A stretch of DNA of 64,000 bases from Antedon mediterranea. Its lineage: Eukaryota > Echinodermata > Crinoidea > Comatulida > Antedonidae. The translations under genes and the position numbers were made by a program. The stretch spans positions 6,267,001 through 6,331,000 of the forward strand of contig NC_092677.1 of the NCBI RefSeq assembly GCF_964355755.1, written 5' to 3'. A model generated the notes under the pieces. The model was not told the origin of the DNA. It saw only the letters and a list, made by a program, of their open reading frames with translations, and made no database searches. Below are positions 38,144 to 62,299 of the stretch, in pieces; position 1 is the stretch's first letter; each line of letters opens with the position of its first letter.

Positions 38144-38357
38144 AGACGTCATTTGTTTACATCGTTTGTGTGGCATAACAAATTCGGTGATTTTTTAGGC
38201 CATAAATAAAGACAAGTAAGATTTGTTATAGTTTTTGCATCGCTTTATTATCGATATCCCTAATACCACAGTCTCTCTGAAAACAAAACAATATTAAACG
38301 TTATCGATGAATGTATTATTAGGCCTATGTTTATAATATGCATAAGTTGACAATATA

Positions 38358-38445
38358 ATGGGGCCGAATCGTCTCTGGCCCGAATTGTAGTCTCTGGCCC
38401 GAATTGTAGTCTCTGGCCCGAATCGTCTCTGGCCCGAATCATCCC
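38358..38445. repeat. GTCTCTGGCCCGAAT short tandem repeat, unit 1
   Basis: Four copies of TCTCTGGCCCGAAT here, against two in unit 2 (43709-43752), two in unit 3 (50779-50824) and three in unit 4 (57127-57185). It is about 0.5 kb beyond the 3' end of gene A in each unit. Confidence 0.8.
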
Positions 38446-38749
38446 GGGTCGTACTGTCACTCTAGGCAGAATCGTCCGCTACCGTGCCAATTGACATCTT
38501 TGGCTAAGAAGTGAACATGTTGTTGATATCAAACTATAATACAACTGAACTCAAATTATTAAATAGAAACCCACAATGTGAACATGTCACAATAATTTAA
38601 TTTCACTATAATCATGTTTTTACATTTCACCATAATAATGTTTTCACATAGGCCTACAGATTGCAGTACAGTAACAGCAATTATTTGTAAGTGTATTATA
38701 CTTATAGCAAATCGATTGTTGATTTTTGGTTTAAATTAGATTAATAATC

Positions 38750-38755
38750 TTTATT
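38750..38755 (-). terminator. polyadenylation signal AATAAA, gene A1
   Basis: Minus-strand AATAAA 154 bases after the gene A1 stop, conserved in position in all four units (for example 44062-44067). Confidence 0.5.
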
Positions 38756-38909
38756 ATTTCTAGTTTAATATTGAATGTCTACTTAAATACCTATCCTTTT
38801 GTTAAGGTACTTATATGTGCCATTCCTCTAAGGAGTCAGTTAAAGAATGTTGGTGACTATATACTTCGTTTATGTCCATCTCACATGCACACTTAGGCTA
38901 GGCTAGGCT

Positions 38910-39803
38910 TTATGTAGATTCAGTTGATTGTAATCTAAGGGCGTACATTTTGTTGTAATATGGAAGAGCAGTGTCTATACATGTGTTAATATCATCGTCG
39001 AGTTCCGATCGGTTTGGCTCTGGTTTGGAAGTGTGGAAGTTTGAACTGGCAAATGCTTCTTTGAATAAGTCTGCCTTTTTGTTTCCTTTCACTGTAATTG
39101 TCGATGACTTCCAGGCCTGGGCTACTTCATCGCCCGGTTGCCAATTTAAGAGTTTATCGCTATACTTAATTCCAATACGCTCACAGAACTGCTTCATAGT
39201 TGACTTTGGGTTTGCAAGCAGATCGTCGGAATCTATGATCACTGGGTTTTGTTCAATGTTGTTTTTAACTAAATGCTCGTAAAGTTGAAAACTTTCTCCA
39301 AATCCGTAATGTTCTGGAATCCATTCGGTAATATCAAGTTCAAATTCTCTGTCTCTTTCTTTTAAAAATCTGCTTAGCATGGCTTTCCACGAGACAAACG
39401 TCTTGACGGGGTTTCGAATTAGAAACGCATGACGGTAACCCATAGGTAACATATCAAGTTTACCTGTAATAGCAAATGCCATGTCTTTAACGAAAATCAC
39501 CTTCTTTTCGGTGTATTCTGCCTCCATTACATCTTCTTTAATAAATGTATATGTTGCCGTTTCATACTTCCAGCCTGCTTGGTAATCCATCTGAACTGCA
39601 TCTATTGTTTTAATAAACTTATCATTGTCTCTCTCTACTTGGTCGTTGAAATGTATTTGCTTATCTGGTCCATAAAAATATACACTGGTGTAAGGCTCAT
39701 TGATGATTTGAACATCATCTAGATTACTCATAGACTTTGTGAATGCAGTAGAAACTGTACGAGGGATACTCCAAAGAATTACACGAACCTGCTTGTCAGA
39801 CAT
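38910..39803 (-). CDS. sulfotransferase-like P-loop protein A1, 297 aa, single exon
   Basis: Intact intronless frame; start context GAAACAATGT has A at -3. Residues 7-25 (RVILWSIPRTVSTAFTKSM) fit the 5'-phosphosulfate-binding loop of PAPS sulfotransferases, in the PR-type form; 129-138 (IRNPVKTFVS) fits the 3'-phosphate loop with Arg130 and Ser138; 188-200 (VIIDSDDLLANPK) followed by the CERIGI segment is the usual C-terminal half of the fold. No signal peptide or membrane anchor, so probably cytosolic. Such proteins are widespread in marine invertebrates and often carry the misleading name 'branched-chain aminotransferase-like'. The acceptor is unknown. Compared with copies A2-A4 this one has Lys4, Asn60, Phe154, Asn181, Thr237 and Leu246. 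Alternative: a P-loop protein without sulfotransferase activity. Confidence 0.85.
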   Translation of the reverse strand: MSDKQVRVILWSIPRTVSTAFTKSMSNLDDVQIINEPYTSVYFYGPDKQIHFNDQVERDNDKFIKTIDAVQMDYQAGWKYETATYTFIKEDVMEAEYTEKKVIFVKDMAFAITGKLDMLPMGYRHAFLIRNPVKTFVSWKAMLSRFLKERDREFELDITEWIPEHYGFGESFQLYEHLVKNNIEQNPVIIDSDDLLANPKSTMKQFCERIGIKYSDKLLNWQPGDEVAQAWKSSTITVKGNKKADLFKEAFASSNFHTSKPEPNRSELDDDINTCIDTALPYYNKMYALRLQSTEST

Positions 39804-39978
39804 TGTTTCAATTGTGAAACGTGTTAGTTGAAAAGAAGAATAATTAATTTATCCTCAGACGTTCTGCAACCTGTTTTGTATTCCCTATAAAGATAATAAA
39901 ATTAGTATAGTCATCGAGGATGAGGAAAATATACATCGTTGTTACACGGACGGTATCAACAGATATGGCGTACCGGTA

Positions 39979-39990
39979 ACGCATGCGCGT
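39979..39990. promoter_or_regulatory. NRF-1-like motif upstream of A1
   Basis: ACGCATGCGCGT, one mismatch from the NRF-1 consensus YGCGCAYGCGCR, about 176 bases before the A1 start codon. GGTAACGCATGCGCGTAG is kept in all four units (near 45280, 52357 and 58678). Suggests a TATA-less proximal promoter. Confidence 0.4.
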
Positions 39991-40118
39991 AGTTTCGGAA
40001 AGCAAAGAACCGCTCGTTCTACTGTACCAATGAAGCATACACGTAGAAGTTGATGGTAATTTAAGCAGTTTGCAGCTCCGAAAGTGTCAACTAAACAAAT
40101 CTAGGCTAGGAATAAATT

Positions 40119-40808
40119 ATGAGAGCTTACCTTGATTGATTATTAGTTAAATACACCAATGTGGCAGATACAATAATGGCTTGTAAAGTTTTGCTTGTAG
40201 TTATATCGAGTTATATCCACTAGGACCCAGTTATTAGAGCTTACCTTGATTGGTTGCTAGTTAAAAATACTAAAATGGCTTTTAAGTTTTGCTTGTAGTT
40301 ATATCCACTAGGCCTCGGTTATCGGAGCTTACCTTGATTAGTTACTAGGTAAATACACCAATGTTGCAGATACTATAATAGCTGTTAAGTTTTGTTTGTA
40401 GTTATATTCCGTAGGCCCCAGTTATCAGAGCTTACCTTGATTGGTTACTAGTTAATTACACCAATGTTGCAGATACAATAATGGCTTTTAAGTTTTGTTT
40501 GTAGTTATATCCACTAGGCCCCAGTTATCAGAGCTTACCTTGATTTGTTACTAGGTAAATACACCAACGTTGCAGATACAAAAATGGCTTTTAAGTTTTG
40601 TTTGTAGTTATATCCACTAGGCCCCAGTTATCAGAGCTTACCTTGATTGGCTACTAGTTAATTACACCAATGTTGCAGATACAATAATGGATTTTAAGTT
40701 TTGTTTGTAGTTATATCCACTAGGCCCCGGTTATCAGAGCTTACCTTGATTGGTTATTAGTTAAATGTGGCAAATACTATAATGGCTTTTAAGTTTCCAG
40801 AGCTTACC
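40119..40808. repeat. 103 bp minisatellite, unit 1 (~7 copies)
   Basis: Monomer landmarks: CAGAGCTTACCTTGATTGGT, TACACCAATGTTGCAGATAC, AATAATGGCTTTTAAGTTTT, AGTTATATCCACTAGGCCCC. It begins ~310 bases upstream of gene A1. On the gene-sense (minus) strand most monomers carry AACCAATCAAGGTAAGC, that is a CCAAT box overlapping a splice-donor-like AAGGTAAG. Confidence 0.88.
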
Positions 40809-40882
40809 TCGTGGAAGAACAAATTTTGTTTTGAACGAGCCTCCGTTTTAAAATAAAGATTCTATTATTATTATTGTATGTA
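40806..40882. mobile_element. LINE/SINE 3' tail with (ATT)n
   Basis: GAACGAGCCTCCGTTTTAAA, then AATAAAGATTCTATTATTAT: a typical non-LTR 3' end with a short ATT microsatellite. It abuts the last partial minisatellite monomer. Copies at about 46828-46907, 53175-53250 and 59600-59680. Confidence 0.6.
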
Positions 40883-41213
40883 TGTGGCAGATACTATAAT
40901 GGCTTTTGTTGTGCTTGTATGTTAGTTATATCCCGTCAGTGACAGCCCTTTAGATACAATAAGTGTTATCTTTGCCTTTATTGAATAAAATATCTCAACC
41001 ACGAGAGTCGTGTCGTAGAAAATAAACACAAATGGTACACATCAGATTACTGTTGTAACTGTGATTACATTCAACTTTGGCTTTTGTGTATTTTGTTGTA
41101 GTCCAGAGATATTATGGTTCACTATGTAATTTTATGAAAATGAAATGAAAAATGTATTAATGAATTGATGAAAAAACACCAGACATTATAGATTAAAGTT
41201 AAATAGTCTACAC

Positions 41214-41331
41214 TATCAAACGTTATGTGATGTGCCCATATATGGACACGATGATGTCATATCACTATTATATTTGAGCATATCACTGCCATATTTGGGC
41301 ACATCACACACAAACTAGTTTGATAGGCCTA
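41214..41331. mobile_element. hAT-like MITE, unit 1
   Basis: GTCTACACTATCAAAC at the left, AAACTAGTTTGATAGGCCTA at the right, interior GTGATGTGCCCATATATGG. Family defined at 21973-22133. Present at the same place in units 2-4 (47234, 53584, 60012), so it inserted before amplification. Confidence 0.75.
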
Positions 41332-41697
41332 TACAACAAAATGTTTCTAATCTTCAAATCAAATAAAAATTGTTTATTTGAAACAATCAAAAATCAATAA
41401 AAGAAAGGGGCAATATTTAGAGATGTAAAGGAAACACGTTACCAACTCAAGATAGATAGATTGTGTACAACTAACTATTAGTTGTATAAACGTAATCTTA
41501 ACTATCTATTTAAAATTTAACCACTATATTTTTTTTGTCCACACATAATTATAATCGATTAAGCGCCCCATTCAAAATTGACCCGCATACACAATTACAC
41601 ACATACATTTACGTTATTATGCCTACAACAGCAACTTGTACTGTGTATCTGTACTAAGATTAAGTTGATAATAAAACTATATTATTACCAAGATCTT

Positions 41698-41888
41698 AAT
41701 TCAATCTTTGATTTTGGTTCGTTCGTTCCAAAAAGAGAACTTAAATTTAATATATATTATTTATGAAGGTATATCTTTGATTTTGTTTCGTTCGTTCCAA
41801 AAAGAAAACTTAAATTTAATATATATAATTATGAAGGTACTATATATCTTTGATTTTGTTTCGTCCGTTCTAAAAGGAGAATTTAAAT
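41698..41888. repeat. ~61 bp tandem repeat, unit 1 (3 copies)
   Basis: TTTGATTTTGTTTCGTTCGT, TCCAAAAAGAGAACTTAAAT and a TATATAATTATGAAGGTA end repeat three times here and in unit 4 (60510-60700), four times in units 2 (48715-48970) and 3 (55066-55320). Confidence 0.8.
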
Positions 41889-41899
41889 TTAATTTTTAA

Positions 41900-42340
41900 T
41901 AGACGTTTTAGTAGATGTAAAGAAAAGGTTAAATGTAATTTGTTCAGGTCGTTTGGTACTAATCTGTACTGTTGTATGTTATGGTCTGACCACACTGTTC
42001 AGAATATTAAATCTTTGGAGGTGTGCTACAACAACTCATTGAGAATGTTGCTAGGCTTATCTAAGCACTGTAGTGCTAGTAATTATGTTTGCCACGAGGA
42101 GAATTCCCTCTTTCTAAGAGCATGTACGCAAGTGTGTCTATGGCTTTAGATTAAGAATTGTGAATAGTGAAAACGATCTGGTTAGGTGTAGGCCACCACG
42201 AACTATTTGTTCCGATATTCAAATCTCTACACCAAGTAAGGAAAACTCCTATTTTAGTTTGATTTTTCGGTTTTCTATTATTTGTTGTTGTATATATAGT
42301 ATGTATGGAATATTTATTCTGAAATAAAGTGATCAAATCA
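41900..42340 (+). mobile_element. non-LTR retrotransposon 3' end, unit 1
   Basis: An open piece reads FRSFGTNLYCCMLW ... NNSLRMLLGL, resembling the post-polymerase region of LINE ORF2 (typical YC..LW and N.A.R.LLGLP motifs), then decays. The 3' end is TTTATTCTGAAATAAAGTGA followed by an ATCAAATCAAATC tail. Copies at about 48980-49410, 55325-55770 and 60720-61150. Confidence 0.65.
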
Positions 42341-42428
42341 AATCATATCAAATTCATATAATTATAAAGGTAGACTTAAACTCAGCCGGTAGTTTGTTGT
42401 ATATAATATGAACAATAAGAATGTTTCA

Positions 42429-42457
42429 CTACACTCTAAACCACATTTAGAGTGTAG
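42429..42457. repeat. perfect 12 bp hairpin
   Basis: CTACACTCTAAA, loop CCACA, TTTAGAGTGTAG. An outer pair, AATGTTTCA and TGAAACATT, encloses it. Conserved in all four units, between the LINE end and pseudo-B. Confidence 0.75.
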
Positions 42458-42676
42458 CGCATATTAAAAATACACTGTTTGAAACATTGTGGTCTTCAAT
42501 TGCTCAATTTAATGTTTCATTTAGAAGGTGCTAGAATATTGGAACAGTCTACTATAGTTTATAGCAAAATTAGCCTCAAAGAAACGTTACCTAGAACAAA
42601 CATGATTATTTTTTATATTGAAACACGCTTAAGATGAATAACATTATACCAACGTTTAATATCGGTCTAATACGTC

Positions 42677-43165
42677 TCTGCTCTACATAAACAAAGATAG
42701 CGAAAAATGGTAAAGATCGGATGGTTGCTTTGGTGCAGTCCACGTAGTACATGGATCCCAGCAAAATATGGATTAGCAGAACGTTTAGAATACCACCATT
42801 TAATTTCATTTGGTATTGAACAAGGCCATATACATGGCTGCAGTCACGTGCTCAAGTTAGTGTTTACCGACCAACCAACCGACCGACCGACATAGTGAGT
42901 TCTAGAGTTACGTTGCACGCGACTAAAAAGACCCGAAAATTTTAGATGCTGATGATCTTCTTGCAAATCCTAAATCAATTCTGAAACATTTGTGAACGCA
43001 CGCGAATAGGATACACCGATGAGGTTGTACAGACGTGGAGTCATCTAAGATGCTCATGAAAGAATATAAAGCGTGTGTACATTACTTTACTCTTCCCTGA
43101 TATTACAAAACTGAATTCTTAAGTACAGTTTTCTTCACTGTAAAACCCGAACCCAGATTTATCAT
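42677..43165 (+). pseudogene. broken sulfotransferase-like gene B, unit 1
   Basis: Aligns piecewise to the intact gene B at 62790. The start codon is lost (AAGATAGCG for AAGATGGCT); after CCACGTAGTA about 420 bases (roughly residues 21-160 of B) are missing, rejoining at the CCAGCAAAATATGGATT segment; the GACC element (42842-42924) sits after the TTTGGTATTGAA segment; a ~30-base deletion follows GATACACCGATGA; and a short insertion containing TTTACTCTTCCCTG interrupts the region after GCGTGTGT. Homology ends near the AACCCGAACC codons. All four units share these lesions. Not translatable as a sulfotransferase. Confidence 0.85.
42842..42924. mobile_element. GACC inverted-repeat element inside pseudo-B, unit 1
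   Basis: AGTCACGTGC ... GCACGCGACT with internal GACCAACCAACCGACCGACC. Unit 1 alone has A for G in the left repeat. Same element as 15198-15287. Other copies: 49914-49996, 56264-56346 and 61653-61735. Confidence 0.75.
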
Positions 43166-44221
43166 CTTTAAGCATTATTATTATTTATTGAGGCAATTAA
43201 TATACATTTTACAAAACATAATACAAATTAAACAAACACAACGTAAGAAGAAAATAATATATAATTATAGTCACTAGCTGCTAGGAAGGCACAAACAGCA
43301 TAAGCTACTGTCACCAATAATTAATGATAAATTACTAAAAGTTAAAATATTAAAAGAATTATATTAAGACTATAGTTTATGTAAGTGTAAACTTAATAAA
43401 ATTGTACATTTAATATACAGTACATACAATTTTTATTATAATATAGGCCTAATAACCAATTATTATGAAGAAACAACTTTAATTATTACACACAGGACGT
43501 AATTTTTTTACGTCGTTTGCGTGGCATAACAAATTCGGTGATTTTTTAGGCCATAAATAAAGACAAGTAAGATTTTTTATAGTTTTATCGCTTTATTATC
43601 GATATCCCTAATACTACAGTCTCTTTAAAAACAAAACATTATTAAACGTTATTGATGAATGTATTATTAGGCCTATCTTTATAATATGCATAAGTTGACA
43701 ATATAAAATGGCCCGAATCGTCTCTGGCCCGAATCGTCTCTGGCCCGAATCATCCCGGGTCGTACTGTCACTCTAGGCCAAATCGTCCGCTACCGTACCA
43801 ATTGACATCTTTGGCATAAGAAGTGAACATGTTGTTGATATCAAACTATAATATAACTGAACTCAAATTATTAAATAGAAACCCACAATGTGAACATGTC
43901 ACAATAATTTAATTTCACTATAATCATATTTTTACATTTCACCATAATAATGTTTTCACATAGGCCTACAGATTGCAGTACAGTAACAGCAATTATTTGT
44001 AAGTGTATTATACTTATAGCAAATCGATTGTTGATTTTTGGTTTAAATTAGATTAATAATCTTTATTATTTCTAGTTTAATATTGAATGTCTACTTAAAT
44101 ACCTATCCTTTTGTTAAGGTACTTATATGTGCCATTCCTCTGAGGAGTCAGTTAAAGAATGTTGGTGACTATATACTTCGTTTATGTCCATCTCACATGC
44201 ACCCTTAGGCTAGGCTAGGCT

Positions 44222-45115
44222 TTATGTAGATCCAGTTGATTGTAATCTAAGGGCGTACATTTTGTTGTAATATGGAAGAGCAGTGTCTATACATGTGTTA
44301 ATATCATCGTCGAGTTCCGATCGGTTTGGCTCTGGTTTGGAAGTGTGGAACTTTGAACTGGCAAATGCCTCTTTGAAAAAGTCTGCCTTTTTGTTTCCTT
44401 TCACTATAATTGTCGATGACTTCCAGGCCTGGGCTACTTCATCGCCCGGTTGCCAATTTAAGAGTTTATCGCTATACTTAATTCCAATACGCTCACAGAA
44501 CTGCTTCATAGTTGACTTTGGGTTTGCAAGCAGATCGTCGGAATCTATGATTACTGGGTTTTGTTCAATGTTGCTTTTAACTAAATGCTCGTAAAGTTGA
44601 AAACTTTCTCCAAATCCGTAATGTTCTGGAATCCATTCGGTAATATCAAGTTCGCATTCTCTGTCTCTTTCTTTTAAAAATCTGCTTAGCATGGCTTTCC
44701 ACGAGACAAACGTCTTGACGGGGTTTCGAATTAGGAACGCATGACGGTAACCCATAGGTAACATATCAAGTTTACCTGTAATAGCAAATGCCATGTCTTT
44801 AACGAAAATCACCTTCTTTTCGGTGTATTCTGCTTCCATTACATCTTCTTTAATAAATGTATATGTTGCCGTTTCATACTTCCAGCCTGCTTGGTAATCC
44901 ATCTGAACTGCATCTATTGTTTTAATAAACTTATCACTGTCTCTCTCTACTTGGTCGTTGAAATGTATTTGCTTATCTGGTCCATAAAAATATACACTGG
45001 TGTAAGGCTCATTGATGATTTGAACATCATCTAGATTACTCATAGACTTTGTGAATGCAGTAGAAACTGTACGAGGGATACTCCAAAGAATTACACGAAC
45101 CTGGTTGTCAGACAT
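44222..45115 (-). CDS. sulfotransferase-like protein A2, 297 aa, single exon
   Basis: Same protein as A1 with Asn4, Ser60, Cys154, Ser181, Ile237 and Phe246 (shared with A3 and A4), Gly77, a private Lys255 and Gly295. Phosphosulfate-loop residues 11-19, Arg130/Ser138 and the 188-200 segment are unchanged, so it should be as functional as A1. Flanks are conserved for >1 kb on both sides: the AATAAA about 150 bases after the stop, the NRF-1-like motif ~165 bases before the start (near 45280) and then the minisatellite. Confidence 0.85.
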   Translation of the reverse strand: MSDNQVRVILWSIPRTVSTAFTKSMSNLDDVQIINEPYTSVYFYGPDKQIHFNDQVERDSDKFIKTIDAVQMDYQAGWKYETATYTFIKEDVMEAEYTEKKVIFVKDMAFAITGKLDMLPMGYRHAFLIRNPVKTFVSWKAMLSRFLKERDRECELDITEWIPEHYGFGESFQLYEHLVKSNIEQNPVIIDSDDLLANPKSTMKQFCERIGIKYSDKLLNWQPGDEVAQAWKSSTIIVKGNKKADFFKEAFASSKFHTSKPEPNRSELDDDINTCIDTALPYYNKMYALRLQSTGST

Positions 45116-45418
45116 TGTTTCAATTGTGAAACGTGTTAGTTGAAAAGAAGAAGAAGTAATTTATCCTCAGACGTTCTGCAACCTGTTTTGTATTCCCTAT
45201 AAAGATAATAAAATTAGTATAGGCTTCTAGGATTAGGAAAATATACATCGTTGTATCAACATATATGACGTACCGGTAACGCATGCGCGTAGTTTCGGAA
45301 AGTAAAGAACCGCTCGTTCTACTGTACCAATGAAGCATACACGTAAAAGTTGATGGTAATTTAAAGAGTTTGCAGCTCCGAATGTGTCAACTAAACAAAT
45401 CTAGGCTAGGAATAATTA

Positions 45419-46826
45419 TGAGACCTTACCTTGATTGATAACTAGTTAAATACACCAATGTGGCAAATACAATAATGGCTTTTAAGTTTTGCTTGTAGTT
45501 ATATCCACTAGGCCTCAGTTATCAGAGCTTACCTTGATTGGTTACTAGTTAATTACACCAATGTTGCAGATACAATAATGGCTTTTAAGTTTTGCTTGTA
45601 GTTATATTTCGTAGGACCAAGTTATCAAAGCTTAACTTGATTAGTTACTAGGTAAAATACACCAATGTTGCAGATACTATAATAGCTTTTAAGTTTTGTT
45701 TGTAGTTATATTCCGTAGGCCCCAGTTATCAGAGCTTACCACCTTGATTGGTTACTATAGTTAATTACACGAATGTTGCAGATACAATAATGGCTTTTAA
45801 GTTTTGTTTGTAGTTATATCCACTAGGCCCCAGTTATCAGAGCTTACCTTGATTGGTTACTATAAATACACCAATGTGGCAAATACAATAATGGCTTTTA
45901 AGTTTTGCTTGTGGTTATATCCACTAGGCCTCAGTTATGAGAGCTTACCTTGATTGGTTACTAGTTAAATACACCAATGTGGCAAATACAATAATGGCTT
46001 TTAAGTTTTGTTTGTAGTTATATTCCGTAGGCCCCAGTTATCAGAGCTTACCTTGATTGGTTACTAGTTAATTACACCAATGTTGCAGATACAATAATGG
46101 CTTTTAAGTTTTGTTTGTAGTTATATCCTTTAGGCCCCAGTTATCAGAGCTTACCTTGATTAGTTACTAGGTAAATACACCAACGTTGCAGATACAATAA
46201 TGGCTTTTAAGTTTTGTTTGTAGTTATATCCACTAGGCCCCAGTTATCAGAGCTTACCTTGATTGGTTACTAGTTAATTACACCAAATGTTGCAGATACA
46301 ATAATGGATTTTAAGTTTTGTTTGTAGTTATATCCACTAGGCCCCAGTTATCAGAGCTTACCTTGATTGGTTACTAGTTAATTACACCAATGTTGCAGAT
46401 ACAATAATGGCTTTTAAGTTTTGTTTGTAGTTATATCCACTAGGCCCCAGTTATCAGAGCTTACCTTGATTTGTTACTAGGTAAATACACCAACGTTGCA
46501 GATACAATAATGGCTTTTAAGTTTTGTTTGTAGTTATATCCACTAGGCCCCAGTTATCAGAGCTTACCTTGATTAGTTACTAGGTAAATACACCAATGTT
46601 GCAGATACAATAATGGCTTTTAAGTTTTGTTTGTAGTTATATCCACTAGGCCCCAGTTATCAGAGCCTACCTTGATTGGTTACTAGTTAATTACACCAAT
46701 GTTGCAGATACAATAATGGATTTTAAGTTTTGTTTGTAGTTATATCCACTAGGCCCCAGTTATCAGAGCTTACCTTGATTGGTTACTAGTTAAATGTGGC
46801 AAATACTATAATGGCTTTTAAGTTTC
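45419..46826. repeat. 103 bp minisatellite, unit 2 (~14 copies)
   Basis: Monomer as in unit 1, spacing 103-104 bases in the homogeneous middle part (46141, 46244, 46348). A variant monomer with CAAAGCTTAACTTGATTAGT (near 45630) is shared with unit 4 only. Roughly twice the array length of the other units. Confidence 0.88.
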
Positions 46827-47233
46827 CAGAGCTTACCTCGTGGAAGAACAAATTTTGTTTTGAACGAGCCTCCGTTTTAAAATAAAGATTCTATTATTAT
46901 TATTGTATGTATGTGGCAGATACTATAATGGCTTATGTTGTGCTTGTATGTTAGTTATATCCCGTCATTGACAGCCCTTTAGATACAATAAGTGTTATCT
47001 TTGCCTTTATTGAATAAAATATCTCAACCACGAGAGTCGTGTCGTAGAAAATAAACACAAATGGTACACATCAGATTACTGTTGTAACTGTGATTACATT
47101 CAACTTTGGCTTTTGTGTATTTTGTTGTAGTCCAGAGATATTATGGTTCACTATGTAATTTTATGAAAATGAAATGAAAAATGTATTAATGAATTGATGA
47201 AAAAACACCAGACATTATAGATTAAAGTTAAAT

Positions 47234-47352
47234 AGTCTACACTATCAAACGTTATGTGATGTGCCCATATATGGACACGATGATGTCATATCACTATTAT
47301 ATTTGAGCATATCACTGCCATATTTGGGCACATCACACACAAACTAGTTTGA
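47234..47352. mobile_element. hAT-like MITE, unit 2
   Basis: Orthologous copy of the unit 1 element at 41214; GATAAGCC replaces GATAGGCC at the right end. Confidence 0.75.
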
Positions 47353-47495
47353 TAAGCCTATACAACAAAATGTTTCTAATCTTCAAATCAAATAAAAATT
47401 GTTTATTTGAAACAATAAAAAATCAATAAAAGAAAGGGGCAATATTTAGAGATGTAAAGGAAACACGTTAGCAAGTCAAGATAGATAGATTGTGT

Positions 47496-48468
47496 CCCTC
47501 AATGTTAAAGTTTATGATAACGTTAGTAGCATACCGTAATAAAAAAAAATAAATAAAAGGCATCCACTCCATAGTAATTATCAATGGTCAAGATCTGAAA
47601 GGCATTTGAGTACTGCTCTAGGTAGAACAAAACGCTTCCTTTTATATCCTTATATTACTAACCTTCAACTAATTTTTAGCAATTGTATGTCAACATGAAT
47701 TTTCTTTACTACAAATTAAATAAACTATTCACTATGAAGATTACGAGAAAAACAAAGTGAAATATTTTTATTGTCAACAATTATCTTACTTACAGAGTAT
47801 AAAAAAAAAGACTTAACAATGTACATCCTTTATCGTTCAAACCATTTACAAAAAATCATCATATAACCTTATTATCATATAACGTAAAGCTGTCCTGATA
47901 TAAAACATAATTTTCATAGTTAAAATTATATTGGGGTATTGCCAATCTGTAAAATTCTACCTATTACTTACTTTTTGGTGCTTGCTATCGTATTGCCTCG
48001 TTCAAAAGAATAATAATTTTAAAAAAATGGATATTTAATTGTTGTAATTGTGCGGGTTATATAAAATAATATATTCAACGGAGGACATGTTTATTTCATT
48101 ACCATCTGTTTCGTTTGCTTGGTCTGTTTTCTCATCTGCACAAATTTTAAAAGGAAAATTTTTTGGTTCTTACTCAGAATTATAATTCGATTAAAAACAA
48201 ACACCCAAACCACCACCACAAAAAAAAAAAAAAAAAAATTATATCGATTTAAACAAAAATATTTAGATAGATTGGCGCGCCTCCCGTTTACGAGAGTCAA
48301 TTTCCAATGTATGTTTAATCAATATAATTATTATACTATTATTTTTTTTTAACAAGAAGTAATTTTTAATTATCTCGAAAGGCTACAATGCGACATATTT
48401 TTGTATTAATACTGATATCCATAGAATGATGATGTGATAAATTGCCAATACATTCAGATTACGTTTGT
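47496..48468. other. 973 bp segment present only in units 2 and 3
   Basis: Lies between GATAGATTGTGT and ACAACTAACTATTAG, which are directly joined in units 1 and 4. No gene recognised. Its right edge contains the left arm of a palindrome (48457-48499: GATTACGTT and ACAACTAA facing TTAGTTGT and AACGTAATC) that is cut in units 1 and 4, so loss from those units is more likely than gain here. The equivalent in unit 3 is 53847-54822. Confidence 0.8.
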
Positions 48469-52192: not shown

Positions 52193-52495
52193 TGTTTCAA
52201 TTGTGAAACGTGTTAGTTGAAAAGAAGAAGAAGTAATTTATCCTCAGACGTTCTGCAACCTGTTTTGTATTCCCTATAAAGATAATAAAATTAGTATAGG
52301 CTTCTAGGATTAGGAAAATATACATCGTTGTATCAACATATATGACGTACCGGTAACGCATGCGCGTAGTTTCGGAAAGTAAAGAACCGCTCGTTCTACT
52401 GTACCAATGAAGCATACACGTAAAAGTTGATGGTAATTTAAAGAGTTTGCAGCTCCGAAAGTGTCAACTAAACAAATCTAGGCTAGGAATAATTA

Positions 52496-53180
52496 TAAGA
52501 CCTTACCTTGATTGATAACTAGTTAAATACACCAATGTGGCAAATACAATAATGGCTTTTAAGTTTTGCTTGTAGTTATATCCACTAGGCCTCAGTTATC
52601 AGAGCTTACCTTGATTGGTTACTAGTTAATTACACAAATATTGCAGATACTATAATAGCTGTTAAGTTTTGTTTGTAGTTATATTCCGTAGGCCCCAGTT
52701 ATCAGAGCTTACCTTGATTGGTTACTAGTTAATTACACCAATGTTGCAGATACAATAATGGCTTTTAAGTTTTGTTTGTATTTATATCCACTAGGCCCCA
52801 GTTATCAGAGCTTACCTTGATTGGTTACTAGTTAATTACACCAATGTTGCAGATACAATAATGGATTTTAAGTTTTGTTTGTAGTTATATCCACTAGGCC
52901 CCAGTTATCAGAGCTTACCTTGATTAGTTACTAGGTAAATACACCAATGTTGCAGATACAATAATGGCTTTTAAGTTTTGTTTGTAGTTATATCCACTAG
53001 GCCCCAGTTATCAGAGCTTACCTTGATTGGCTACTAGTTAATTACACCAATGTTGCAGATACAATAATGGATTTTAAGTTTTGTTTGTAGTTATATCCAC
53101 TAGGCCCCGGTTATCAGAGCTTACCTTGATTGGTTATTAGTTAAATGTGGCAAATACTATAATGGCTTTTAAGTTTCCAG
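52496..53180. repeat. 103 bp minisatellite, unit 3 (~7 copies)
   Basis: Same monomer family. Its distal end, GGCTACTAGTTAATTACACC then CCCCGGTTATCAGAG then GGTTATTAGTTAAATGTGG, matches units 1 and 4 but not unit 2. Confidence 0.85.
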
Positions 53181-53583
53181 AGCTTACCTCGTGGAAGAAC
53201 AAATTTTGTTTTGAATGAGCCTCCGTTTTAAAATAAAGATTCTATTATTATTATTGTATGTATGTGGCAGATACTATGATTGCTTATGTTGTGCTTGTAT
53301 GTTAGTTATATCCCGTCATTGACAGCCCTTTAGATACAATAAGTGTTATCTTTGCCTTTATTGAATAAAATATCTCAACCACGAGAGTCGTGTCGTAGAA
53401 AATAAACACAAATGGTACACATCAGATTACTGTTGTAACTGTGATTACATTCAACTTTGGCTTTTGTGTATTTTGTTGTAGTCCAGAGATATTATGGTTC
53501 ACTATGTAATTTTATGAAAATGAAATGAAAAATGTATTAATGAATTGATGAAAAAACACCAGACATTATAGATTAAAGTTAAA

Positions 53584-53703
53584 TAGTCTACACTATCAAA
53601 CGTTATGTGATGTGCCCATATATGGACACGATGATGTCATATCACTATTATATTTGAGCATATCACTGCCATATTTGGGCACATCACACACAAACTAGTT
53701 TTA
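53584..53703. mobile_element. hAT-like MITE, unit 3
   Basis: Copy of 41214-41331; the right end has AGTTTTATAGG for AGTTTGATAGG. Confidence 0.7.
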
Positions 53704-53846
53704 TAGGCCTATACAACAAAATGTTTCTAATCTTCAAATCAAATAAAAATTGTTTATTTGAAACAATCAAAAATCAATAAAAGAAAGGGGCAATATTTAG
53801 AGATGTAAAGGAAACACGTTAGCAACTCAAGATAGATAGATTGTGT

Positions 53847-54822
53847 CCCTCAATGTTAAAGTTTATGATAACGTTAGTAGCATACCGTAATAATAAAAAA
53901 ATAAATAAAAGGCATCCACTCCATAGTAATTATCAATGGTCAAGATCTGAAAGGCATTTGAGAACTGCTCTAGGTAGAACAAAACGCTTCCTTTTATATC
54001 CTTATATTACTAACCTTCAACTAATTTTTAGCAATTGTATGTCAACATGAATTTCCTTTACTACAAATAAAATAAACTATTCACTATGAAGATTACGAGA
54101 AAAACAAAGTGAAATATTTTTATTGTCAACAATAATCTTACTTAAAGAGTAAAAAAAAGAAAGACTTAACTATGTACATCCTTTATCGTTCAAACCATTT
54201 ACAAAAAAATCATCATATAACCTTATTATCATATAACGTAAAGCTGTCCTGATATAAAACATAATTTTCATAGTTAAAATTATATTGGGGTATTGCCAAT
54301 CTGTAAAATTCTACCTATTACTTACTTTTTGGTGCTTGCTATCGTATTGCCTCGTTCAAAAGAATAATAATTTTAAAAAAATGGATATTTAATTGCTGTA
54401 ATTGTGCGGGTTATATAAAATAATATATTCAACGGAGGATATGTTTATTTCATTACCATCTGTTTCGTTTGCTTGGTCTGTTTTCTCATCTGCACAAATT
54501 TTAAAAGGAAAATTGTTTGGTTCTTACTCAGAATTATAATTCGATTAAAAACAAACACCCAAACCACCACCACAAAAATAAAACAAAAAAAAATTATATC
54601 GATTTAAACAAAAATATTTAGATAGATTGGCGCGCCTCCCGTTTACGAAAGTCAATTTCCAATGTATGTTCAATCAATATAATTATTATACTATTATTTT
54701 TTTTAACAAGAAGTAATTTTTAATTATCTCGAAAGGCTACAATGCGACATATTTTTGTATTAATACTGATATCCATAGAATGATGATGTGATAAATTGCC
54801 AATACATTCAGATTACGTTTGT
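53847..54822. other. 976 bp segment, unit 3 counterpart of 47496-48468
   Basis: Colinear with the unit 2 segment, with small indels in A tracts. No coding content recognised. Confidence 0.8.
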
Positions 54823-55324
54823 ACAACTAACTATTAGTTGTGTTAACGTAATCTTAACTATCTATTTAAAATTTAACCACTATATTTATTTTGTCCACGC
54901 ATAATTATAATCGATTAAGCGCCCCATTCAAAATTGACCCGCATACACAATTACACACATACATTTACGTTATTATGCCTACAACAGCAACTTGTACTGT
55001 ATATCTGTACTGCATAAGATTAAGTTGATAATAAAACTGTATTATTACCAATATCTTAATTCAATCTTTGATTTTGGTTTGTTCGTTCCAAAAAGAGACC
55101 TTAAATTTAATATATATATTTATGAAGGTATATCTTTGATTTTGTTTTGTTCGTTCCAAAAAGAGAACTTAAATTTAATATATATAATTATGAAGGTATA
55201 TCTTTAATTTTGTTTCGTTCGTTCCAAAAAGAGAACTTAAATTTAATATATATAATTATGAAGGTACTATATATCTTTGATTTTGTTTCGTCCGTTCTAA
55301 AAGGAGAATTTAAATTTAATTTTT

Positions 55325-55770
55325 AGTAGACGTTTTAGTAGATGTAATGAAAAGGTTAAACGTAATTTGTTCAGGTCGTTTGGTACTAATCTGTACTGTT
55401 GTATGTTATGGTCTGACCACACTGTTCAGAATATTAAATCTTTGGAGGTGTGCTACAACAACTCATTGAGAATGTTGCTAGGCTAATTATCTAAGCACTG
55501 TAGTGCTAGTAATTATGTTTGCCACGAGGAGAATCCCCTCTTTCTACGAGCATGTACGCAAGTGTGTCTATGGTTTTAGATTAAGAATTGTGAATAGTGA
55601 AAACGATCTGGTTAGGTGTACCACGAACTATTTTTTCCGATATTCAAATCTCTACACCACCAAGTAAGGAAAACTTCTATTTTAGTTTGATTTTCAGGTT
55701 TTCTATTATTTGTTTTTGTATATATAGTGTTATATATGGAATATTTATTCTGAATAAAGTAATCAAATCA
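55325..55770 (+). mobile_element. non-LTR retrotransposon 3' end, unit 3
   Basis: Copy of 41900-42340, preceded by four ~61 bp repeats (55066-55320). Confidence 0.6.
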
Positions 55771-56097
55771 AATCAAATCCATATAATTATAAATGTAGAC
55801 TTAAACTCAACCGGTAGTATGTTGTATATAATATGAACAATAAGAATGTTTCACTACACTCTAAACCACATTTAGAGTGTAGCGCATATTAAAAATACAC
55901 TGTTTGAAACATTGTGGTCTTCAATTGGTCAATTTAATGTTTCATTTAGAAGGTGCTAGAATATTGGAACAGTCTACTATAGTTTATAGCAAAATTAGCC
56001 TCAAAGAAACGTTACCTAGAACAAACATTATTTTTTATATTGAAACACGCTTAAGATGAATAACATTATACCAACGTTTAATATCGGTCTAATACGT

Positions 56098-56578
56098 CTC
56101 TGCTCTACATTAACAAAGATAGCGAAAAATGGTAAAGATCGGATGGTTGCTTTGGTGCAGTCCACGTAATACATGGATCCCAGCAAAATATGGATTAGTA
56201 AAACGTTTAGAATACCACCGTTTCATTTCATTTGGTATTGAACAAGGCCATATACATGGCTGCAGTCGCGTGCTCAAGTTAGTGTTTACCGACCAACCAA
56301 CCGACCGACCGACATAGTGAGCTCTAGAGTTACGTTGCACGCGACTAAAAAGACCCGAAAATTTTAGATGCTGATGATCTTCTTGCAAATCCTAAATCAA
56401 TTCTGAAACATTTGTGAACGCACGCGAATAGGATACACCGATGAGGTTGTACAGACGTGGAGTCATCTACGATGCTCATGAAGGGATATAAAACGTGTGT
56501 AAATTACTTTACTCTTCCCTGATATTACAAAATTGAATTCTCAAGTACTGTTTTCTTCACTGTAAAACCCGAACCCAG
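56098..56578 (+). pseudogene. broken sulfotransferase-like gene B, unit 3
   Basis: Same set of lesions as units 1 and 2, with the GACC element at 56264-56346. Point changes: GTAAAACG for GCAGAACG; CTACGATGCTCATGAAGGG, closer to intact B than the unit 1 and 2 copies at that place. Confidence 0.85.
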
Positions 56579-57619
56579 ATTTATCATCCTTAAGCATTAT
56601 TATTATTTATTGAGGCAATTAATATACATTTTACAAAACATAATACAAATTAAACAAACACAACGTAAGAAGAAAATAATATATAATTATAGTCACTAGC
56701 TGCTAGGAAGGCACAAAGCAGCATAAGCTACTGTCACCAATAATAATGATAAATTACTAAAAGTTAAAATAAGAATTATATTAAGACTATAGTTTATGTA
56801 AGTGTAAACTTAATAAAATTGTACATTTGATATACAGTACATACAATTTTTATTATAATATAGGCCTAATAACCAATTATTATGAAGAAACAACTTTAAT
56901 TATTACATACAGGACGTAATTTGTTTACGTCGTTTGCGTGGCATAACAAATTCGGTGATTTTTTAGGCCATAAATAAAGACAAGTAAGATTTGTTATAGT
57001 TTTATCGCTTTATTATCGATATCCCTAATACTACAGTCTCTTTAAAAACAAAACATTATTAAACGTTATTGATGAATGTATTATTAGGCCTATCTTTATA
57101 ATATGCATAAGTTGACAATATAAAATGGGCCGAATCGTCTCTGGCCCGAATCGTCTCTGGCCCGAATCGTCTCTGGCCCGAATCATCCCGGGTCGTACTG
57201 TCACTCTAGGCCAAATCGTCCGCTACCGTACCAATTGACATCTTTGGCATAAGAAGTGAACATGTTGTTGATATCAAACTATAATACAACTGAACTCAAA
57301 TTATTAAATAGAAACCCACAATGTGAACAATAATTTAATTTCACTATAATCATATTTTTACATTTCACCATAATAATGTTTTCACATAGGCCTACAGATT
57401 GCAGTACAGTAACAGCAATTATTTGTAAGTGTATTATACTTATAGCAAATCGATTGTTGATTTTTGTTTTAAATTAGATTAATAATCTTTATTATTTCTA
57501 GTTTAATATTGAATGTCTACTTAAATACCTATCCTTTTGTTAAGGTACTTATATGTGCCATTCCTCTAAGGAGTCACGTTTATGTCCATCCCACATGCAC
57601 CCTTAGGCTAGGCTAGGCT

Positions 57620-58513
57620 TTATGTAGATTCAGTTGATTGTAATCTAAGGGCGTACATTTTGTTGTAATATGGAAGAGCAGTGTCTATACATGTGTTAAT
57701 ATCATCGTCGAGTTCCGATCGGTTTGGCTCTGGTTTGGAAGTGTGGAAGTTTGAACTGGCAAATGCTTCTTTGAAAAAGTCTGCCTTTTTGTTTCCTTTC
57801 ACTATAATTGTCGATGACTTCCAGGCCTGGGCTACTTCATCGCCCGGTTGCCAATTTAAGAGTTTATCGCTATACTTAATTCCAATACGCTCACAGAACT
57901 GCTTCATAGTTGACTTTGGGTTTGCAAGCAGATCGTCGGAATCTATGATTACTGGGTTTTGTTCAATGTTGCTTTTAACTAAATGCTCGTAAAGTTGAAA
58001 ACTTTCTCCAAATCCGTAATGTTCTGGAATCCATTCGGTAATATCAAGTTCGCATTCTCTGTCTCTTTCTTTTAAAAATCTGCTTAGCATGGCTTTCCAC
58101 GAGACAAACGTCTTGACGGGGTTTCGAATTAGGAACGCATGACGGTAACCCATAGGTAACATATCAAGTTTACCTGTAATAGCAAATGCCATGTCTTTAA
58201 CGAAAATCACCTTCTTTTCGGTGTATTCTGCTTCCATTACATCTTCTTTAATAAATGTATATGTTGCCGTTTCATACTTCCAGCTTGCTTGGTAATCCAT
58301 CTGAACTGCATCTATTGTTTTAATAAACTTATCACTGTCTCTCTCTACTTGGTCGTTGAAATGTATTTGCTTATCTGGTCCATAAAAATATACACTGTTG
58401 TAAGGCTCATTGATGATTTGAACATCATCTAGATTACTCATAGACTTTGTGAATGCAGTAGAAACTGTACGAGGGATACTCCAAAGAATTACACGAACCT
58501 GGTTGTCAGACAT
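57620..58513 (-). CDS. sulfotransferase-like protein A4, 297 aa, single exon
   Basis: Differs from A3 by Asn39 (Thr in the others; it lies in the EPY-T-SVYF segment that follows the first loop) and Glu295 (as in A1). Binding-loop residues are intact. The 3' flank is shortened by about 40 bases near 57575; the AATAAA position is retained. NRF-1-like motif near 58678. Confidence 0.85.
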   Translation of the reverse strand: MSDNQVRVILWSIPRTVSTAFTKSMSNLDDVQIINEPYNSVYFYGPDKQIHFNDQVERDSDKFIKTIDAVQMDYQASWKYETATYTFIKEDVMEAEYTEKKVIFVKDMAFAITGKLDMLPMGYRHAFLIRNPVKTFVSWKAMLSRFLKERDRECELDITEWIPEHYGFGESFQLYEHLVKSNIEQNPVIIDSDDLLANPKSTMKQFCERIGIKYSDKLLNWQPGDEVAQAWKSSTIIVKGNKKADFFKEAFASSNFHTSKPEPNRSELDDDINTCIDTALPYYNKMYALRLQSTEST

Positions 58514-58815
58514 TGTTTCAATTGTGAAACGTGTTAGTTGAAAAGAAGAAGAAGTAATTTATCCTCAGACGTTCTGCAACCTGTTTTGTATTTCCTATAA
58601 AGATAATAAAATTAGTATAGGCTTCTAGGATTAGGAAAATATACATCGTTGTATCAACATATATGACGTACCGGTAACGCATGCGCGTAGTTTCGGAAAG
58701 TAAAGAACCGCTCGTTCTATTGTACCAATGAAGCATACACGTAAAAGTTGATGGTAATTTAAAGAGTTTGCAGCTCCGAAAGTGTCAACTAAACAAATCT
58801 AGGCTAGGAATAATT

Positions 58816-59610
58816 ATGAGACCTTACCTTGATTGATAACTAGTTAAATACACCAATGTGGCAAATACAATAATGGCTTTTAAGTTTTGCTTGTAGTTAT
58901 ATCCACTAGGCCTCAGTTATCAGAGCTTACCTTGATTGGTTACTCGTTAATTACACCAATGTTGCAGATACAATAATGGCTTTTAAGTTTTGCTTGTAGT
59001 TATATTTTGTAGGACCCAGTTATCAAAGCTTAACTTGATTAGTTACTAGGTAAAATACACCAATGTTGCAGATACTATAATGGCTTTTAAGTTTTGTTTG
59101 TAGTTATATTCCGTAGGCCCCAGTTATCAGAGCTTACCACCTTGATTGGTTACTATAGTTAATTACACGAATGTTGCAGATACAATAATGGCTTTTAAGT
59201 TTTGTTTGTAGTTATATCCACTAGGCCCCAGTTATCAGAGCTTACCTTGATTGGTTACTATTTAAATACACCAATGTGGCAAATACAATAATGGCTTTTA
59301 AGTTTTGTTTGTAGTTATATCCACTAGGCCCCAGTTATCAGAGCTTACCTTGATTAGTTACTAGGTAAATACACCAATGTTGCAGATACAATAATGGCTT
59401 TTAAGTTTTGTTTGTAGTTATATCCACTAGGCCCCAGTTATCAGCTTACCTTGATTGGCTACTAGTTAATTACACCAATGTTGCAGATACAATAATGGAT
59501 TTTAAGTTTTGTTTGTAGTTATATCCACTAGGCCCCGGTTATCAGAGCTTACCTTGATTGGTTATTAGTTAAATGTGGCAAATACTATAATGGCTTTTAA
59601 GTTTCCAGAG
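58816..59610. repeat. 103 bp minisatellite, unit 4 (~8 copies)
   Basis: Proximal monomers resemble unit 2 (CAAAGCTTAACTTGATTAGT near 59030, and ACCACCTTGATTGGTTAC near 59137); distal monomers resemble units 1 and 3. A mosaic array. Confidence 0.85.
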
Positions 59611-60011
59611 CTTACCTCGTGGAAGAACAAATTTTGTTTTTAACGAGCCTCCGTTTTAAAATAAAGATTCTATTATTATTATTGTATGTATGTGGCAGAT
59701 ACTATAATGGCTTATGTTGTGCTTGTATGTTAGTTATATCCCGTCATTGACAGCCCTTTAGATACAATAAGTGTTATCTTTGCCTTTATTGAATAAAATA
59801 TCTCAACCACGAGAGTCGTGTCGTAGAAAATAAACACAAATGGTACACATCAGATTACTGTTGTAACTGTGATTACATTCGACTTTGGCTTTTGTGTATT
59901 TTGTTGTAGTCCAGAGATATTATGGTTCACTATGTAATTTTATGAAAATGAAATGAAAAATGTATTAATGAATTGATGAAAAAACACCAGACATTATAGA
60001 TTAAAGTTAAA

Positions 60012-60130
60012 TAGTCTACACTATCAAACGTTATGTGATGTGCCCATATATGGACACGATGATGTCATATCACTATTATATTTGAGAATATCACTGCCAT
60101 ATTTGGGCACATCACACACAAACTAGTTTG
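60012..60130. mobile_element. hAT-like MITE, unit 4
   Basis: Copy of 41214-41331 with GAGAATATC for GAGCATATC inside. Confidence 0.75.
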
Positions 60131-60719
60131 ATAGGCCTATACAACAAAATGTTTCTAATCTTCAAATCAAATAAAAATTGTTTATTTGAAACAATCAAAA
60201 ATCAATAAAAGAAAGGGGCAATATTTAGAGATGTAAAGGAAACACGTTACCAACTCAAGATAGATAGATTGTGTACAACTAACTATTAGTTGTATAAACG
60301 TAATCTTAACTATCTATTTAAAATTTAACCACTATATTTTTTTTGTCCACACATAATTATAATCGATTAAGCGCCCCATTCAAAATTGACCCGCATACAC
60401 AATTACACACATACATTTACGTTATTATGCCTACAACAGCAACTTGTACTGTGTATCTGTACTAAGATTAAGTTGATAATAAAACTATATTATTACCAAT
60501 ATCTTAATTCAATCTTTGATTTTGGTTCGTTCGTTCCAAAAAGAGAACTTAAATTTAATATATATTATTTATGAAGGTATATCTTTGATTTTGTTTCGTT
60601 CGTTCCAAAAAGAGAACTTAAATTTAATATATATAATTATGAAGGTACTATATATCTTTGATTTTGTTTCGTCCGTTCTAAAAGGAGAATTTAAATTTAA
60701 TTTTTAATAGACGTTTTAG

Positions 60720-61150
60720 TAGATGTAAAGAAAAGGTTAAATGTAATTTGTTCAGGTCGTTTGGTACTAATCTGTACTGTTGTATGTTATGGTCTGACCA
60801 CACTGTTCAGAATATTAAATCTTTGGAGGTGTGCTACAACAACTCATTGAGAATGTTGCTAGGCTAATTATCTAAGCACTGTAGTGCTAGTAATTATGTT
60901 TGCCACGAGGAGAATTCCCTCTTTCTAAGAGCATGTACGCAAGTGTGTCTATGGCTTTAGATTAAGAATTGTGAATAGTGAAAACGATCTGGTTAGGTGT
61001 AGGCCACCACGAACTATTTGTTCCGATATTCAAATCTCTACACCAAGTAAGGAAAACTCCTATTTTAGTTTGATTTTTCGGTTTTCTATTATTTGTTGTT
61101 GTATATATAGTATGTATGGAATATTTATTCTGAAATAAAGTGATCACATC
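60720..61150 (+). mobile_element. non-LTR retrotransposon 3' end, unit 4
   Basis: Very close to the unit 1 copy (same GTAGGCCACCACGAAC variant, absent from units 2 and 3), preceded by three ~61 bp repeats (60510-60700). Confidence 0.6.
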
Positions 61151-61487
61151 AAATCATATCAAATTCATATAATTATAAAGGTAGACTTAAACTCAGCCGG
61201 TAGTATGTTGTATATAATATGAACAATAAGAATGTTTCACTACACTCTAAACCACATTTAGAGTGTAGCGCATATTAAAAATACACTGTTTGAAACATTG
61301 TGGTCTTCAATTGGTCAATTTAATGTTTCATTTAGAAGGTGCTAGAATATTGGAACAGTCTACTATAGTTTATAGCAAAATTAGCCTCAAAGAAACGTTA
61401 CCTAGAACAAACATGATTATTTTTTATATTGAAACACGCTTAAGATGAATAACATTATACCAACGTTTAGTATCGGTCTAATACGTC

Positions 61488-61960
61488 TCTGCTCTACATA
61501 AACAAAGATAGCGAAAAATGGTAAAGATCGGATGGTTGCTTTGGTGCAGTCCACGTAGTACATGGATCCCAGCAAAATATGGATTAGCAGAACGTTTAGA
61601 ATACCACCATTTAATTTCATTTGGTATTGAACAAGGCCATATACATGGCTGCAGTCGCGTGCTCAAGTTAGTGTTTACCGACCAACCAACCGACCGACCG
61701 ACATAGTGAGCTCTAGAGTTACGTTGCACGCGACTAAAAAGACCCGAAAATTTTAGATGCTGATGATCTTCTTGCAAATCCTAAATCAATTCTGAAACAT
61801 TTGTGAACGCACGCGAATAGGATACACCGATGAGGTTGTACAGACGTGGAGTCATCTACGATGCTCATGAAGGGATATAAAGCGTGTGTACATTACTTTA
61901 CTCTTCCCTGATATTACAAAACTGAATTCTCAAGTACTGTTTTCTTCACTGTAAAACCCG
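61488..61960 (+). pseudogene. broken sulfotransferase-like gene B, unit 4
   Basis: Same lesions, GACC element at 61653-61735. The 5' part resembles unit 1 (GCAGAACG, CATTTAATTTC) and the 3' part resembles unit 3 (CTACGATGCTCATGAAGGG). It stands ~0.8 kb before the intact gene B on the same strand. Confidence 0.85.
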
Positions 61961-62299
61961 AACCCAGATTTATCATCTTTAAGCATTATTATTATTTATT
62001 GAGGCAATTAATATACATTTTACAAAACATAATACAAATTAAACAAACACAACGTAAGAAGAAAATAATATATAATTATAGTCACTAGCTGCTAGGAAGG
62101 CACAAAGCAGCATAAGCTACTGTCACCAATAATAATGATAAATTACTAAAAGTTAAAATATTAAAAGAATTATATTAAGACTATAGTTTATGTAAGTGTA
62201 AACTTAATAAAATTGTACATTTAATATACAGTACATACAATTTTTATTATAATATAGGCCTAATAACCAATTATTATGAAGAAACAACTTTAATTATTA

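What the first reader, a model, noticed from the sequence alone, without database searches (positions are those of the whole stretch)
38144..62299. Four-fold tandem amplification of an intronless sulfotransferase-like gene
Four direct units of 5.35-7.07 kb each carry an open 297-aa gene on the same strand with the same flanks; proteins differ at about ten positions in all (4, 39, 60, 77, 154, 181, 237, 246, 255, 295), none in the phosphosulfate-binding loops. Keeping four copies open while the neighbouring pseudo-B stays broken suggests selection for dosage or recent birth. Echinoderms and other marine invertebrates make many sulfated small molecules, so a lineage-specific expansion of sulfation capacity is a reasonable but unproven idea.
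Basis: partly seen in the sequence, partly recalled or inferred. Interest (0 to 1): 0.72.

Follow-up and report, generated by a model that had tools for sequence, protein, structure and literature searches.

The report
Recent four-fold sulfotransferase gene amplification
An animal genome carries four nearly identical neighbouring copies of an intronless gene for an enzyme that probably adds sulfate to small molecules; they are the youngest burst in a gene family that this animal has expanded repeatedly, which is an ordinary way for genes to multiply.

Summary
Four head-to-tail units (38139-62299; 5.35, 7.07, 6.35, 5.39 kb) each carry an open 297-aa gene, with ten variable residues in all. Profile and fold comparisons place the protein in the PAPS-sulfotransferase fold (Pfam Sulfotransfer_5; nearest solved structures: CurM and olefin-synthase sulfotransferase domains). 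Of 52 family places examined in this genome 46 are open single frames, 31 of them within 50 kb of another; intronlessness is thus a family trait. The four copies are the youngest burst found. They are a recombination mosaic, as unequal crossing-over or gene conversion would leave. Coding sequence varies less than its flanks (15/894 vs 43/995 sites; 0 vs 12 indels), so the genes are constrained, but the signal comes mainly from unit 1 versus the rest. Selection for dosage is not shown, and pseudo-B is no evidence for it: its shared stops predate the amplification. Each gene has a 103-bp array about 300 bp upstream, with no other match in the genome search. Copy number was not checked with reads; the species was not identified. 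Ordinary overall, with a modest substrate lead from bacterial operons.

The parts
38139..43488 (.). Unit 1 (5350 bp), left edge copy, most diverged in its left half
43489..50560 (.). Unit 2 (7072 bp), has the 977-column segment and the longest 103-bp array
50561..56906 (.). Unit 3 (6346 bp), has the 977-column segment
56907..62299 (.). Unit 4 (5393 bp), right edge copy, lacks the 977-column segment
38910..39803 (-). gene A1, 297 aa, Sulfotransfer_5
44222..45115 (-). gene A2, 297 aa (not itself scanned against Pfam)
51299..52192 (-). gene A3, 297 aa (not itself scanned against Pfam)
57620..58513 (-). gene A4, 297 aa, Sulfotransfer_5, modelled
40117..40796 (.). 103-bp array upstream of A1 (5 full copies plus partial ones)
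45416..46825 (.). 103-bp array upstream of A2 (12 full copies plus partial ones)
52493..53176 (.). 103-bp array upstream of A3 (6 full copies plus a partial one)
58814..59604 (.). 103-bp array upstream of A4 (7 full copies plus a partial one)
42746..43157 (+). pseudo-B remnant in unit 1
49824..50157 (+). pseudo-B remnant in unit 2
56174..56579 (+). pseudo-B remnant in unit 3
61557..61968 (+). pseudo-B remnant in unit 4
47496..48465 (.). segment (977 alignment columns) present in units 2 and 3 only; its first 246 bp match dispersed repeats, the rest matched only units 2 and 3 (40 of 73 candidates scored)
53847..54819 (.). the same segment in unit 3
62790..63677 (+). intact gene B, 295 aa, about 63% identical to A

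Best explanation
Gene A encodes a soluble, probably cytosolic PAPS-dependent sulfotransferase of Pfam family Sulfotransfer_5 that moves a sulfuryl group from PAPS to a small acceptor (fold and donor-loop motifs shown by comparison; activity, location and acceptor inferred). A segment holding A, its 5' minisatellite and an already dead B copy was duplicated in tandem (no long homology seen by eye at the ends), then raised to four by unequal crossing-over and homogenised in patches by recombination (inferred from the mosaic). It is the newest burst found in a family that this animal expanded repeatedly. The four genes together show purifying selection; whether the extra copies raise fitness through dosage is open.
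For: Pfam Sulfotransfer_5 44-46 bits against a cut-off of 23.2 in the three window proteins scanned, A1, A4 and B. A profile of 4 window proteins and 26 bacterial relatives finds CurM sulfotransferase at 2.3e-08 and the olefin-synthase domain at 3.5e-04, the only 2 PDB sequences passing 0.01. The A4 model (mean pLDDT 77.5, pTM 0.82) aligns to both at Z 14.0-14.2, and all 50 rows shown are sulfotransferases. P14 and R15 are invariant, and S18, T19, R130 and S138 are in 90% or more, of 23 family rows from this genome; R15, R130 and S138 are invariant in 4 window plus 26 bacterial rows. The first strand is residues 6-12, which leaves no room for an N-terminal membrane anchor. Amplification. Mosaic: 35 informative sites with 5 switches, 0 of 20,000 shuffles as few. 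Youngest burst. Constraint: 15/894 vs 43/995 variable sites, p = 0.0008; 0 vs 12 indels, p = 0.0006, or 0 vs 7, p = 0.016, without five indels at the unit edge, in a T run or in short tandem repeats.
Against: No single protein reached a sulfotransferase structure by sequence alone: phmmer's 10 listed hits for A4 were unrelated, E 0.5 or worse. Foldseek TM-scores (query) are only 0.30-0.48. R130 is lysine in two of the 23 family rows, L036 and L044. dN/dS within the array is 0.25-0.99 from few changes, and nonsynonymous 11/715 against synonymous 4/177 is not significant (p = 0.51), so constraint shows only with the flanks as yardstick. Copy number rests on one assembly.
Confidence: 0.8

Rival explanations
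1. Neutral recent duplication: the four copies are open mainly because they are young, and copy number drifts.
For: A2-A4 differ by only 3-5 nt in the CDS and the CDS-flank contrast within U2-U4 is not significant (6/894 vs 13/995, p = 0.25). Unit divergence of about 1-3% is what alleles show in many marine invertebrates (recalled). A1 carries 8 amino-acid differences from each other copy, with dN/dS 0.39-0.66 against about 0.1 for A versus its relative L001 (that dS is saturated).
Against: Over all four units the CDS has fewer variable sites than its flanks and no indels. At the flank rate about 38 substitutions were expected in the CDS (my arithmetic; 15 seen), and 5% of random changes would be nonsense.
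Confidence: 0.4
2. Assembly artefact: two haplotypes, or a misresolved repeat, were laid end to end and the true array is shorter.
For: Copy divergence (0.3-1.5% in the CDS, up to about 4.7% upstream) is of the order of allelic divergence (recalled), and one assembly without reads was available.
Against: The grouping of the units changes along their length instead of giving two haplotype pairs throughout; flanks are not duplicated; among 46 open family members no pair outside A1-A4 is above 96.5% identical, so uncollapsed haplotigs are not seen at these loci. No N in the window. A misresolved repeat inside the array is not excluded.
Confidence: 0.1
3. Adaptive dosage amplification: more enzyme A is favoured and the 103-bp array in front of each copy is part of the tuning.
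For: Four open copies, constraint on the CDS, and an array that the genome search matched only upstream of these four genes and that differs in length (5, 12, 6 and 7 full copies).
Against: No expression or population data; one base of the CCAAT-like motif in the repeat is altered in 9 or more of 30 copies, so no constraint on that motif is visible; arrays also drift in length neutrally.
Confidence: 0.15

Closest known systems
Pfam PF19798 Sulfotransfer_5 (bacterial small sulfotransferases)
   Same: The three window proteins scanned pass the curated cut-off; same donor-loop residues as 26 bacterial relatives
   Different: The window proteins score 44-46 bits, the 4 bacterial members scanned 46-192 bits; in the alignment the animal form has about 20 extra residues near 65-84 and about 15 near 150-165
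CurM and olefin-synthase sulfotransferase domains (4gbm, 4gox)
   Same: PAPS-sulfotransferase fold, Z 14, profile match
   Different: 11-12% identity; those are domains of larger biosynthetic proteins (titles; their role recalled), A is free-standing
Cytosolic SULT family (PF00685), including the 83-gene scallop expansion (PMC5700196, passages seen)
   Same: Small-molecule sulfotransferases that expand in lineages; this genome has its own PF00685 cluster at C7:4.57-4.67 Mb
   Different: A1 and A4 score below the PF00685 cut-off (20.4 and 18.7 against 22); most PF00685 rows listed here are exon-sized pieces, A is one frame

Membership tests
Sulfotransfer_5 (PF19798) | Score above the curated cut-off | tested here: met
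   44.3, 45.5 and 46.1 bits against 23.2 for A1, A4 and B; A2 and A3 not scanned
Sulfotransfer_5 (PF19798) | Donor-loop residues PR..ST near the N-terminus and R.......S after a later strand | tested here: met
   P14, R15, R130 and S138 invariant, S18 and T19 at 90% or more in 30 rows; their role in PAPS binding is recalled
PAPS-dependent sulfotransferase fold | Structural match to solved sulfotransferases | tested here: met
   50 of 50 rows shown are sulfotransferases, Z 14.2-9.3; Foldseek 28 matches at E <= 0.001
PAPS-dependent sulfotransferase fold | PAPS binding and sulfuryl transfer | not testable with these tools
   needs protein
Cytosolic SULT (PF00685) | Score above the curated cut-off | tested here: not met
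   20.4 and 18.7 bits against 22 for A1 and A4; no match listed for B
Golgi tyrosylprotein/heparan sulfotransferases | N-terminal membrane anchor before the catalytic domain (recalled) | tested here: not met
   the modelled domain starts with strand 6-12; no anchor predictor was run
Adaptive dosage array | Expression or fitness rises with copy number | not testable with these tools
   no reads or population data
Assembly duplication artefact | Duplicated flanks or haplotype-paired units | tested here: inconclusive
   flanks not duplicated and units not paired throughout, but read support could not be tested

The most novel reading that the evidence does not exclude
The locus is a self-tuning dosage module: each copy carries its own expandable 103-bp promoter-proximal array, copy number and array length vary between individuals, and together they set the output of a single-frame sulfotransferase making a lineage-specific sulfated small molecule of the amino- or organic-acid class hinted at by the bacterial operons.
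Probability: 0.08. Interest if true: 0.5.

Novelty: new member of a known kind. Interest (0 to 1): 0.25.

Why it matters
It is a clean example of tandem amplification caught young, with edge-copy divergence, patchwork recombination and a dead passenger gene whose lesions order the events. The family looks little studied: a full-text search for Sulfotransfer_5 or PF19798 returned 2 papers; in the one opened (PMC11625862, passages) the domain is only listed, and the other (PMC12506393) was seen as a listing. A search on echinoderm sulfotransferase families returned 2 papers, listings only. The conserved bacterial operons give a first handle on what it may act on.

Tried and rejected
Phmmer of A4 against the PDB gave only unrelated hits at E 0.5-1; a profile was needed. 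NCBIfam gave nothing for 4 animal proteins and nothing for 2 bacterial relatives. A COX1 search to read the mitochondrial code found no match, so the phylum was not fixed that way. An innexin search gave only two weak matches (34.1 and 31.2 bits, cut-off 25); most protostomes have many strong innexins (recalled), so this mildly favours an ambulacrarian but proves nothing. Contig lengths (C1 41.4 Mb and seven others; C11 at least 22 Mb) suggest about 11 chromosomes; two paper searches to name the species found nothing usable.

Considered and rejected: CCAAT-box constraint in the 103-bp repeat, since 9 or more of 30 copies are altered at one base of it; a GGTAAGC (splice-donor-like) motif in the repeat is a bare observation without RNA evidence. 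The 977-column segment as a clean transposon insertion: most of it matched only units 2 and 3, so deletion from U1 and U4 is as likely. Preferential gene conversion of the CDS: synonymous sites are not significantly below the flanks (4/177 vs 43/995, p = 0.30). Literature searches gave nothing on this family in their listings.
Full report
Observation. The window lies at G000:C8:6267001-6331000 of a 354-Mb assembly in 18 contigs. Self-comparison and a four-way alignment of 7161 columns show four direct units, 38139-62299. Each carries one open 297-aa frame on the - strand, a 103-bp tandem array about 300 bp upstream of its start codon, a broken B copy on the + strand and, in U2 and U3 only, a segment of 977 alignment columns. 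An intact B follows at 62790-63677.

Identity. A1, A4 and B pass Pfam Sulfotransfer_5 (A2 and A3 were not scanned). A profile of 4 window proteins and 26 bacterial relatives matches two solved sulfotransferases, CurM and the olefin-synthase domain; phmmer with A4 alone had found only unrelated chains. The AlphaFold2 model of A4 (mean pLDDT 77.5) aligns to both at Z 14.0-14.2 over 226-234 residues, and all 50 rows listed are sulfotransferases. Foldseek query TM-scores are low, 0.30-0.48; of its 50 rows shown one is a deoxycytidine kinase (rank 34) and one a retinol dehydratase (rank 27), the rest sulfotransferases. The residues expected to hold PAPS (R15, S18, T19, R130, S138; role recalled) are in 90% or more of the 23 family rows aligned, though two rows have lysine for R130, and none of the ten variable positions falls in these loops. 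The donor fold is well supported; activity and acceptor are inferred.

Family. A search of the whole genome with A4 lists 76 matching stretches. I cut out 47 places, leaving out several short or broken fragments (for example on C8 near 16.03 Mb, C1 near 19.644 Mb, C3 near 28.223 Mb). With the five window genes 46 of 52 are open for 240 aa or more; the other 6 (L018, L022, L024, L027, L046, L047) are short or broken. Of the 46, 31 lie within 50 kb of another open member and 15 are alone; three more genes and fragments lie just right of the window. All 46 read as a single frame; introns in untranslated parts were not tested. The Pfam Sulfotransfer_5 model itself rings only 15 times in six frames, so it misses many of these diverged members. 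In the tree A1-A4 form one clade (support 1.0), next to B plus L001 (0.987); some other nodes are weak, down to 0.07. Outside A1-A4 the closest pair is L030-L038, 96.5% identical, dS 0.118, against 0.006-0.029 within A. So the four-fold array is the latest burst found among these genes, and the single-frame structure is older than it.

How it arose. By eye the unit ends share no long homology: AATTATTA joins CACACAGGACG at the first two junctions and CATACAGGACG at the third. Along the unit the relationships change. In the left part U1 is the outlier, with 18, 9 and 12 private differences in the 3' flank, CDS and upstream 300 bp. From 41442 to 42802, 26 sites group U1 with U4 and U2 with U3 (one further such site lies at 38920). 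From 43048 to 43120 four sites group U1 with U2. Shuffling the 35 informative sites never gave as few switches (0 of 20,000). This is the footprint of unequal crossing-over or gene conversion, with the left edge of the array least homogenised. Unit lengths differ mainly through the 103-bp array (5, 12, 6, 7 full copies), the 977-column segment and a 67-bp repeat.

Selection. The CDS has 15 of 894 variable sites and no indels; the adjoining flanks 43 of 995 and 12 indels (Fisher p 0.0008 and 0.0006). Five of the 12 indels lie at the unit edge, in a T run or in short tandem repeats; without them p is 0.016. Split by branch, U1 versus the rest gives 9/894 vs 30/995 (p 0.002), U2-U4 only 6/894 vs 13/995 (p 0.25). 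Nonsynonymous 11/715 versus flank p 0.001; synonymous 4/177 versus flank p 0.30; nonsynonymous versus synonymous p 0.51. Pairwise dN/dS is 0.25-0.99. So A is constrained by the flank yardstick, but nothing shows selection for more copies. Two stops are shared by all four pseudo-B copies, and a third by the three rows that reach it, so their decay came before the amplification and is no contrast to A. The unit-4 pseudo-B is 73-81% identical to B and 69-82% to L001 in the pieces aligned.

Bacterial relatives. A family profile finds 64 relatives, 21-41% identical in the best segment, by record title mostly Alphaproteobacteria and Gammaproteobacteria with some cyanobacteria and others. Grouping flank ORFs by blastp, in 44 of 64 an arylmalonate-decarboxylase-like gene lies next to the sulfotransferase on the same strand (23 of these 44 also with a Rieske oxygenase within the 3-kb flanks), in 13 of 64 a class IV aminotransferase, in 7 neither. 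The families were named from 2, 1 and 3 representatives; the decarboxylase match is weak (27.9 and 33.5 bits, cut-off 25.9) and fails the NCBIfam equivalog. This suggests small organic or amino acids as the ancestral substrate field. It is a lead, not a result: the animal enzymes are far diverged.

Limits. No reads, no RNA, no relatives' genomes and no named species. The left flank query (36600-38100) matches elsewhere only through a dispersed repeat, the right one only through family members, which speaks against a doubled haplotype; a misresolved repeat within the array is not excluded. Of papers I saw search listings, and passages of PMC5700196 (scallop SULT expansion to 83 genes) and PMC11625862. 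The finding is real and ordinary: a recent tandem burst in an expanded enzyme family.

Noticed in passing
40117-40796, 45416-46825, 52493-53176, 58814-59604: 103-bp arrays about 300 bp upstream of each A gene; the genome search matched only these four places. The consensus holds a CCAAT-like and a GGTAAGC motif, and copies fall into at least two sub-types.
   Followed up: partly
L051-L114: Bacterial Sulfotransfer_5 relatives sit in two conserved neighbourhoods: arylmalonate-decarboxylase-like (44 of 64) and class IV aminotransferase (13 of 64).
   Followed up: partly
G000:C7:4.57-4.67 Mb: Cluster of exon-sized matches to classical SULT (PF00685) in the same genome.
   Followed up: no
25472-27738: Two exon-like matches to a sodium:neurotransmitter symporter (PF00209) on the + strand.
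   Followed up: no
5008-6030: Two exon-like matches to class II aldolase/adducin on the - strand, with a third below the cut-off at 8720-9265.
   Followed up: no
37513-37869: Dispersed repeat of about 340 bp with inverted ends (37507-37565 / 37806-37866); 39 further copies at 91-96% identity among the 40 of 1263 candidates scored.
   Followed up: no
15198-15296: About 100-bp repeat that also lies inside all four pseudo-B copies (e.g. 42842-42933).
   Followed up: no
G000:C10:4916006-4937557: Only two weak innexin matches listed for the whole genome, in open frames of 305 and 328 aa.
   Followed up: no
11305-11377: tRNA-Val (GAC) gene.
   Followed up: no
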